Below are positions 36,915-63,494 of a stretch of 64,000 nt of DNA, in pieces (position 1 is the stretch's first letter; each line of letters starts with the position of its first letter). This DNA comes from an uncultured Eubacteriales bacterium (GTDB lineage: Bacteria; Bacillota; Clostridia; Christensenellales; Aristaeellaceae), in assembly GCA_902767565.1 (NCBI GenBank), contig CACXHY010000002.1:62001-126000 (forward strand). Reading direction: 5' to 3'. The position numbers were made by a program, and so were the translations under genes. The notes below the pieces were generated by a model. The model ran no database searches, had not been told where the DNA came from, and saw nothing but the letters and a program-made list of their open reading frames with translations.

Positions 36915-38255
36915 TTACGGCTTCAGTTCCCGCAGCACCTCGTCCAGGGACTGATCCCGGGCTTTTGCCAGGGCTGCGATATCCTCGTATTCGGCTTTGC
37001 GGCGGGTGACGCCCAGCCCTTGCGCGGTCTTGAACCGGACGGGGCCCAGGGGCGTTTCCTCGGTCTCCACCCGGCGGGCCAGGGCGTAGCGGCTCATGTC
37101 CAGGCGGCGGATGCCCAGGGTGGTGGTGTGCTTCATCATCAGGGCGGCCAGGCGGTCGGCGTCCTCCGGCAGGCAGATCACGCTCAGCAGAACGCCCGGG
37201 CGGCTCTTCTTCATGCCGATGGGAGTGGTGTACACATCGCGGGCGCCCGCCGCGAACAGCACTTCCGCCGCGAAGCCCAGGGCCTCGCCGGTCATGTCGT
37301 CCAGGTTGCACTCCAGCCGCGTGATCTCTTCCCGCTTCGTTTCCGCCTCGCCCAGGAAGGCCCGGACGCAGTTGGCGCGCTCGAAGTCCTTTTTGCCCAT
37401 GCCGTAGCCGATGGCGGAGGCCGCCATGACGGGGCGGTCGCCGAACCGGGCGGCAAAGTGCTTCAGCAGGGCCGCGCCCGTGGGCGTGCACAGCTCTCCC
37501 CGCACCTGCCCGCCGTAAGTGGGCACGCCCCGCAGGATCAGCGCCGTGGCCGGGGCGGGCACCGGGAGGATGCCGTGGGCGCAGTGCACGTGACCGCTGC
37601 CCACATGCACCGGGGAGGCGGCGATCTCCTCCGCGCCGATGCGCTCCATCAGCATGCACACGCCCACCACGTCCGCCACGGCGTCCATGGTGCCCACCTC
37701 GTGGAAGTGCACCTGGTCCACGGGCTTGCCGTGCACCGCGCTCTCCGCCTCCGCCACCAGACCGAAGACGGCTTTGGCATTTGCCTTCACCCGGTCGGAC
37801 AGGGCCAGTCCGTCGATCACCGCCGCGATGTCCGCCACGGAGGCGTGGCGGTGATGATGCTCATGATCATGGTCGTGCTCGTGGTCATGATCGTGATGAT
37901 GCTCATGGTCATGGTCGTGCTCGTGGTCATGATCGTGATGATGCTCATGGTCGTGGTCATGCTCGTGGTCACGATCGTGATGATGCTCATGGTCATGCTC
38001 GTGGTCATGATCATGATGATGCTCATGGTCATGCACGTCCCCGGATCCCTCTTCCTCTCCGCAGACGGTGACCTTCATGTGGGTGCCGGTGATGCCGCAC
38101 TTGACCGCGGGCTCGGCCTCCACCCGGACCCCCGGCAGTCCCAGGGCGTTGATCTCGTCCAGAAAGGCCTGCCGGTCCGGGATCAGCTCCAGAAGGGCCC
38201 CCATCAGCATGTCGCCGGCCGCGCCCATGGCGCATTCGACATACAGGGTCTTCAT
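36915..38255 (-). CDS. larC: LarC, nickel insertion protein for the lactate racemase cofactor
   Basis: A 446-residue LarC, which inserts Ni into pyridinium-3,5-bisthiocarboxylate mononucleotide. Family motifs include the N-terminal ECAMGAAGDMLMGALLEL, HFHEVGTMDAVADVVG, SGHVHCAHGILPVPAPAT and the C-terminal ECNLDDMTGEALG. In some lactobacilli LarC is made from two frames by a programmed frameshift; here it is one uninterrupted frame. Residues 75-137 are a His/Asp/Glu tract with about 36 His in 63, a likely nickel store. The start is ATG 38253-38255; upstream in-frame sequence runs into the tRNA gene. No larA, larB or larE is in the window, so the client enzyme is elsewhere or different. Confidence 0.93.
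   Translation of the reverse strand: MKTLYVECAMGAAGDMLMGALLELIPDRQAFLDEINALGLPGVRVEAEPAVKCGITGTHMKVTVCGEEEGSGDVHDHEHHHDHDHEHDHEHHHDRDHEHDHDHEHHHDHDHEHDHDHEHHHDHDHEHDHDHEHHHRHASVADIAAVIDGLALSDRVKANAKAVFGLVAEAESAVHGKPVDQVHFHEVGTMDAVADVVGVCMLMERIGAEEIAASPVHVGSGHVHCAHGILPVPAPATALILRGVPTYGGQVRGELCTPTGAALLKHFAARFGDRPVMAASAIGYGMGKKDFERANCVRAFLGEAETKREEITRLECNLDDMTGEALGFAAEVLFAAGARDVYTTPIGMKKSRPGVLLSVICLPEDADRLAALMMKHTTTLGIRRLDMSRYALARRVETEETPLGPVRFKTAQGLGVTRRKAEYEDIAALAKARDQSLDEVLRELKP
37845..38033 (-). repeat. 42-bp in-frame tandem repeats encoding the LarC His tract
   Basis: Units starting GATGATGCTCATG repeat every 42 bp: two differ at one base, a third differs at a few, a fourth is 36 bp and a fifth is partial. 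Each full unit encodes 14 residues of alternating His, Asp and Glu. Length variation by slippage in multiples of 6 or 42 bp would keep the frame. Confidence 0.9.
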
Positions 38256-38549: not shown

Positions 38550-38590
38550 GGGGGAAAATCAAATTTTGTGGAAAACGCGCCGACAGCCGG

Positions 38591-38793
38591 TTACTGTTCA
38601 GCCGTCGGCATACCCATGCGGATCGATAGACGGGAAACCCACGAAGCGGGTGTCTTCCATGCCGACCGCACATGGCGGGTGCGGGCCGCAGGCCGGCTCT
38701 CTCTTCTCCCCCTTCCCTCGGGGGGCAGGGGGATGGGGCGCCGCGGCTTGCGGATCGTTCGCGGCACAATACGCCGGGCGGACTGAACAGTTA
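38591..38793. mobile_element. MITE-like element, copy 1 (203 bp)
   Basis: The ends TTACTGTTCAG and CTGAACAGTTA are inverted repeats (10 of 11). The element is flanked by a perfect 10-bp direct repeat CGACAGCCGG (38581-38590 and 38794-38803), which reads as a target-site duplication. The interior matches a second, inverted copy at 63232-63437 over most of its length, including AAGCGGGTGTCTTCCATG, CGCACATGGCGGGTGCGGG and GGCAGGGGGATGGGGCG. It has no transposase and no convincing gene; a GC-rich hairpin near 38707-38735 could act as a terminator for nagA. It sits between the tRNA promoter and the nagA 3-prime end. Confidence 0.8.
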
Positions 38794-38830
38794 CGACAGC
38801 CGGAGCGGCGGTCATGCCGGATCCCGCCGT

Positions 38831-63155: not shown

Positions 63156-63231
63156 CCGCACCGGCGAATTCCGCTCCGGTCACCCGCCCGATGCGGGCAC
63201 GCTTTTGTCCGGTTTTCACATTTTTCGTTCG

Positions 63232-63437
63232 TAACTGTTCGGTCCGCTCTGTGTACTGTGTCAGCAAACGATCTCCGAACCGATCCGCCCCATCCCCCTG
63301 CCCCCTTCCCGAGGGAAGGGGGGAGAATAGAGCGCGGGCCCGCGGCCCGCACCCGCCATGTGCGACTCGCATGGAAGACACCCGCTTCATGCGTTTCCTG
63401 TCCATCCATGCCGGTCTGCCGACCGACTGAACAGTCA
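63232..63437. mobile_element. MITE-like element, copy 2 (206 bp, inverted relative to copy 1)
   Basis: Ends are TAACTGTTCGG and CTGAACAGTCA, matching the copy 1 ends. Read in reverse it shares most of its interior with 38591-38793. The ten bases on each side share TTCGTTC in the same register (7 of 10), as expected for a decayed 10-bp target duplication. It occupies most of the 339-nt gap between UPF0210 and obgE. A weak CCCGC/GCGGG hairpin at 63183-63199, before the element, may terminate UPF0210 transcription. No obgE promoter is obvious outside the element. Confidence 0.78.
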
Positions 63438-63494
63438 CCTTCGTTCTTCATTCTGCGTTCTTCATTCGATCCCCACCATCCGCGGAGGGCTCAT

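What the first reader, a model, noticed from the sequence alone, without database searches (positions are those of the whole stretch)
38581..38803. MITE-like repeat with terminal inverted repeats and perfect 10-bp target duplication
A 203-bp element has 11-bp inverted ends, is bounded by identical CGACAGCCGG repeats, and shares its interior with a second inverted copy at 63232-63437, 24 kb away, which also shows a decayed duplication in the same register. It contains no transposase. This fits a non-autonomous transposon moved by an unknown element.
Basis: seen in the sequence. Interest (0 to 1): 0.62.

Follow-up and report, generated by a model that had tools for sequence, protein, structure and literature searches.

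The report
IS66-driven MITE family, ~40 copies
The repeat is a small transposon without its own enzyme, present in about 40 copies in this uncultured Clostridia genome, and its ends and 8-bp target duplications show that it was moved by transposases of the IS66 family (ISBst12 group); it is a new family of a well-known kind.

Summary
The element is 38590-38794 (205 bp). Its ends are GTRACTGTTCAG (GTRACTGTTCAGTC in most copies) and the target duplication is 8 bp (GACAGCCG), not 10. The own genome holds 39 copies with both ends and about 20 fragments. Of the 39, 23 have flanking octamers matching at 7-8 of 8 positions, against about 0.16 expected; no other duplication length shows a signal. The "unknown element" can be named by class: ISBst12-type (single-ORF) IS66 insertion sequences. 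In related Clostridia, IS66 elements carry the same ends and 8-bp duplications, including one intact copy (1,589 bp, 492-aa transposase, duplication CTTCTGTT) and one with the exact MITE ends. ISDge4, an ISBst12-group element seen to transpose in Deinococcus, has GTGACTACTCAGCA/GTAACTGCTCAGCA ends and an 8-bp repeat. No IS66 transposase was found in the own genome (89% complete, one 2.2-kb contig unreadable), so the family is probably orphaned there. Extras: unrelated interiors share these ends in other genera, and an apparent IS110 element has inserted repeatedly at one point of this MITE's central hairpin. Ordinary in kind, but well resolved.

The parts
38582..38589 (.). left copy of the 8-bp target duplication GACAGCCG
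   Evidence: sequence; register test
38590..38794 (+). MITE copy 1, 205 bp, no transposase gene
38590..38603 (+). left terminal inverted repeat GTTACTGTTCAGCC
38781..38794 (-). right terminal inverted repeat (GTAACTGTTCAGTC read on the - strand)
38795..38802 (.). right copy of the 8-bp target duplication GACAGCCG
63223..63230 (.). target duplication TTTCGTTC (7 of 8 with the other side)
63231..63438 (-). MITE copy 2, 208 bp, about 80% identical to copy 1 and 94% to the family consensus
63439..63446 (.). target duplication CTTCGTTC

Best explanation
A MITE family of about 205 bp cross-mobilised in trans by an ISBst12-type IS66 transposase. Shown: about 40 dispersed copies with 12-14-bp inverted ends GTRACTGTTCAG(TC) and 8-bp target duplications, no gene inside, and IS66 elements in related genomes with the same ends and the same duplication length. 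Inferred: the transposase binds the two ends, cuts or copies the element out and joins it to target ends staggered by 8 bp, and repair makes the duplication. The interior is passive cargo. The parental IS66 is no longer detectable in the genome, so the family is probably immobile now.
For: 43 matches in the own genome; 82 TIR hits versus 5 control. Flank test on 39 copies: 10 perfect and 13 one-mismatch octamers versus 0.08 and 0.08 expected, signal only at length 8. IS66 with the same ends: L142 1,349 bp, ends GTAACTGTTCAGCC/GTAACTGTTCAGTC, duplication ATGCTTTT; L137 1,589 bp with intact 492-aa transposase, ends GTAACTATTCAGTC, duplication CTTCTGTT; L136 1,591 bp, duplication ACGGAAAG; exact ends also beside IS66 genes in L139, L141, L146, L114 and L167. 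The transposase family is PF03050. L101/L132 in G089 is a 489-bp deletion derivative with both ends and an IS66 C-terminal remnant inside, an intermediate between IS and MITE. Literature: ISDge4, ISBst12 group, ends GTGACTACTCAGCA/GTAACTGCTCAGCA, 8-bp repeat, 449-aa single-ORF transposase, transposition observed (PMC12898284); 8-bp repeats for IS66 (PMC11946415; PMC3281130).
Against: No IS66 transposase in the own genome by Pfam model, single protein or profile, so the actual mobiliser was not seen beside this family. The genome is 89% complete and contig C20 (2,247 bp) reads as N, so one could be hidden. Beyond the first ~14 bp the MITE shows no evident similarity to the IS66 ends seen. Transposition itself was not observed.
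Confidence: 0.91

Rival explanations
1. A functional intergenic RNA or DNA hairpin element (REP-, terminator- or attenuator-like) kept by selection, whose ends only look like a transposon.
For: The DNA fold of copy 1 is somewhat more stable than shuffles (z -2.6); the central 60 bp is the most conserved part and makes two hairpins; nearly all copies are outside coding-like frames (2 of 36 inside, crude test).
Against: Compensatory changes do not exceed shuffled columns convincingly (22 versus 16.4 +/- 3.2) and broken pairs equal the shuffled number (382 versus 387); no Rfam family matches; the 8-bp duplications show insertion; the repeat is absent from 11 same-genus genomes.
Confidence: 0.04
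2. A MITE moved by a transposase of another family that also makes 8-bp duplications.
For: No IS66 gene is visible in the own genome; a Y1 (RAYT-like) gene lies near one such end in L118.
Against: The ends match IS66 elements of relatives at 13-14 of 14 bases with identical duplication length in several loci. The end in L118 resembles the 5' end of the IS66 element in L146. Y1 enzymes do not make target duplications (own knowledge).
Confidence: 0.05

Closest known systems
IS66 family, ISBst12 group (e.g. ISDge4 of Deinococcus geothermalis, PMC12898284)
   Same: Ends GTRACTNYTCAG-like, 8-bp target duplication; relatives' elements have the same single-ORF DDE_Tnp_IS66 transposase and about 1.6 kb length.
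   Different: The window element has no transposase and only 205 bp; its interior is not recognisably related to the IS66 gene.
Bacterial MITEs such as MITECca01 (IS982-derived, PMC9769881) and MITEPsy1 (IS5-like, PMC3189936)
   Same: Short, multicopy, inverted ends shared with a parental IS, no gene; target duplication (shown for MITEPsy1).
   Different: Other parental families; here the parent class is IS66 and is not detectable in the same genome.
IS110-family elements that target REP sequences (IS621, PMC11208160)
   Same: An IS110-like element in this genome inserts repeatedly at one point of a repetitive extragenic hairpin, here the MITE core.
   Different: The target is a MITE hairpin, not a REP; the bridge RNA was not tested, and the transposase gene was only seen in a relative.

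Membership tests
MITE (non-autonomous DDE transposon) | Short element with terminal inverted repeats | tested here: met
   199-214 bp for unsplit copies, ends GTRACTGTTCAG(TC)
MITE (non-autonomous DDE transposon) | Flanking target duplication of fixed length | tested here: met
   8 bp; 23 of 39 copies at 7-8 of 8
MITE (non-autonomous DDE transposon) | No transposase gene inside; multicopy | tested here: met
   205 bp with at most incidental frames; 43 matches
MITE (non-autonomous DDE transposon) | Shares ends with an autonomous element | tested here: met
   IS66 elements in related genomes; not in the same genome
MITE (non-autonomous DDE transposon) | Transposition in trans observed | not testable with these tools
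   needs a mobility assay
IS66-derived / ISBst12-group mobilised | Ends beginning GTRA and like those of ISBst12-group elements | tested here: met
   GTRACTGTTCAGTC versus IS66 ends GTAACT(A/G)TTCAGTC and ISDge4 GTGACTACTCAGCA/GTAACTGCTCAGCA
IS66-derived / ISBst12-group mobilised | 8-bp target duplication | tested here: met
   the same in L136, L137, L142
IS66-derived / ISBst12-group mobilised | Single-ORF IS66 transposase in the partner, no tnpA/tnpB | tested here: met
   L137 is 1,589 bp with one 492-aa gene; PF03050 in its relative
IS66-derived / ISBst12-group mobilised | Interior descended from an IS66 element | tested here: inconclusive
   no IS66 coding match in the own genome; no evident similarity beyond the ends on inspection. 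A deletion derivative with IS66 remnant exists in G089
Structured RNA / REP-like element | Compensatory base changes in the hairpins | tested here: not met

The most novel reading that the evidence does not exclude
The MITE core hairpin acts as a preferred landing site for an RNA-guided IS110 element in this genome, so that one mobile family supplies harmless targets for another; and a single ISBst12-type end sequence supports a family-wide guild of MITEs with unrelated interiors.
Probability: 0.25. Interest if true: 0.5.

Novelty: new member of a known kind. Interest (0 to 1): 0.33.

Why it matters
It names the class of transposase behind an abundant repeat in uncultured Clostridia and shows that ISBst12-type IS66 ends support several MITE families with different interiors across genera. 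Searches of the open-access library found no described IS66-derived MITE, although subscription papers and ISfinder were not available. It also explains where this genome's assembly breaks.

Tried and rejected
A 10-bp duplication: rejected by the register test. The 1,737-bp TIR pair at C2:264461-266197 as the autonomous partner: rejected, it is a MITE copy with an IS481-like element inserted. A conserved RNA: no covariation excess, no Rfam match. RAYT as mobiliser: one gene near one end in L118, that end resembling an IS66 5' end. An IS66 gene in the own genome: three searches negative. Viral contigs: no exact hit to the MITE left end. Empty sites in same-genus genomes were not aligned; these genomes lack the repeat altogether. 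Literal TIR search in papers: only unrelated papers by their titles.

Full report
Observation. The two copies lie at 38590-38794 (+) and 63231-63438 (-). The terminal repeat begins with G: GTTACTGTTCAG on the left and GTAACTGTTCAG on the right of copy 1. Copy 2 has 7 of 8 bases left.

Genome-wide. The window lies in contig C2 (62001-126000) of a 2.05-Mb, 20-contig genome, 89% complete. A search with copy 1 gave 43 matches. The end GTRACTGTTCAG with up to one mismatch gave 82 hits against 5 for the reversed control. A profile search of the fetched regions gave 59 hits; 38 have both ends, and one further copy is split by an inserted IS. Mean pairwise identity is 81%, and single copies are 67-94% identical to the consensus, which suggests an old or repeatedly active family rather than one recent burst (inference).

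Target duplication. For the 39 copies the flanking octamers match at 5.8 of 8 positions on average, 2.1 expected. Ten are perfect and 13 have one mismatch, expected 0.08 and 0.08; no permutation of 20,000 did as well. Identity per position is 0.67-0.79 inside the 8 bp; mean identity for every other tested length (4-12 bp) is 0.25-0.34. This is the strongest single evidence that the repeats were inserted by a transposase making 8-bp staggered cuts. Ten copies match at 4 or fewer positions; these are old, rearranged or mis-bounded copies (inference).

Partner. The own genome has no IS66 transposase (Pfam PF03050; protein; profile), with the caveats of 89% completeness and of contig C20 (2,247 bp), which reads as N. 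Related genomes supply the link. In the same taxonomic family the MITE's 14-bp end (pattern GTRACTGTTCAGNC) occurs in 19 of 120 genomes, up to 121 times in one, with almost no control hits. IS66 elements in that family carry these ends: L142 (exact ends, duplication ATGCTTTT, reading frame broken), L137 (intact 492-aa gene, 1,589 bp, GTAACTATTCAGTC at both ends, duplication CTTCTGTT), L136 (duplication ACGGAAAG), and single exact ends beside IS66 genes in L139, L141, L146, L114 and L167. Pfam confirms the family. L101/L132 is a 489-bp element with both ends and a ruined IS66 C-terminus between them, the kind of deletion product from which MITEs are thought to arise. Named records from the one public-genome scan place close relatives of this transposase in uncultured Clostridia, several from the rumen.

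Literature. ISDge4 of Deinococcus geothermalis, ISBst12 group of IS66, has ends GTGACTACTCAGCA and GTAACTGCTCAGCA, one 449-aa gene and an 8-bp repeat, and was seen to transpose (PMC12898284). The GTGAC/GTAAC asymmetry is the same as in many MITE copies. IS66 elements in Frankia and Paracoccus also make 8-bp repeats (PMC11946415; PMC3281130). Searches for IS66 with MITE found none described as IS66-derived; the library is open-access only.

Interior. The most conserved part is a central block with two G+C-rich hairpins. Double changes that keep pairing do not exceed shuffles convincingly (22 versus 16.4 +/- 3.2) and broken pairs equal the shuffled number, so I see no sign of selection for RNA structure. 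Copies are mostly outside coding-like frames (2 of 36 inside, a crude test). No copies were found in 11 same-genus genomes or 48 other relatives; fragments of the hairpin block alone occur in a few.

Nested insertions. Three contigs end (C2, C9, C14) and three begin (C6, C12, C18) inside the MITE at the same point of the central hairpin, joined there to one foreign sequence at the ends and another at the starts. C2's end has left octamer AAGCGAGA and C18's start has right octamer AAGCGAGA, so these two are most likely halves of one MITE copy. The 80-bp foreign end has relatives in six other genomes of the family; in G298 it lies next to an IS110 transposase (PF01548, PF02371). An IS110-type element therefore seems to use the MITE core as a site, as IS621 uses REP sequences (PMC11208160). 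The bridge RNA was not tested, and the assembly joins rest on short sequence.

Mechanism. Most likely: an ISBst12-type IS66 transposase recognised the GTRACTGTTCAG(TC) ends in trans and inserted the element at 8-bp staggered targets. Shown: ends, duplications, copy number, partner class in relatives. Inferred: transposition chemistry, that this transposase class was once in this genome, and that the family is now immobile there.

Verdict. A real, well-defined MITE family; a new member of a known kind, of modest interest.

Noticed in passing
own genome C2:282251, C9:97015, C14:56938 (ends) and C6, C12, C18 (starts); loci L062, L067, L078, L064, L065, L066: An IS110-like element appears inserted at the same point of the MITE core hairpin in at least three copies, in the same orientation; the target duplication AAGCGAGA pairs the end of contig C2 with the start of C18.
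   Followed up: partly
L109:1501-1975, L122:783-1531, L107, L108, L119, L120 (genus g7): Other MITEs with the same end sequence but unrelated interiors; one end is a 31-bp palindrome of two ends around 3 bases (GTRACTGTTCAGWCnnnGWCTGAACAGTYAC). L109 and L122 have perfect 8-bp duplications.
   Followed up: partly
L061:3962-5698 (C2:264461-266197): A MITE copy interrupted by an IS481-like element (rve, LZ_Tnp_IS481); the outer duplication is still 7 of 8.
   Followed up: yes
L168 (Methanolobus), L170 (Methanosarcinaceae): IS66-like elements with GTAACTATTCAGCC ends also occur in archaeal genomes, so this end type is very widespread.
   Followed up: no
window 37809-38054: Tandem array of 12-18-bp units (GTGATGATGCTCATGGTC...) inside a large reading frame; read on the - strand it would give a His/Asp-rich stretch, suggesting a metal-binding segment.
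   Followed up: no
own genome C17:31828-32037 and C17:32103-32305: Two adjacent MITE copies with variant ends (GCTGCCGTTCAG / GCATCTGTTCTG) and the same octamer CTGCATTC, possibly a tandem duplication of one insertion.
   Followed up: no
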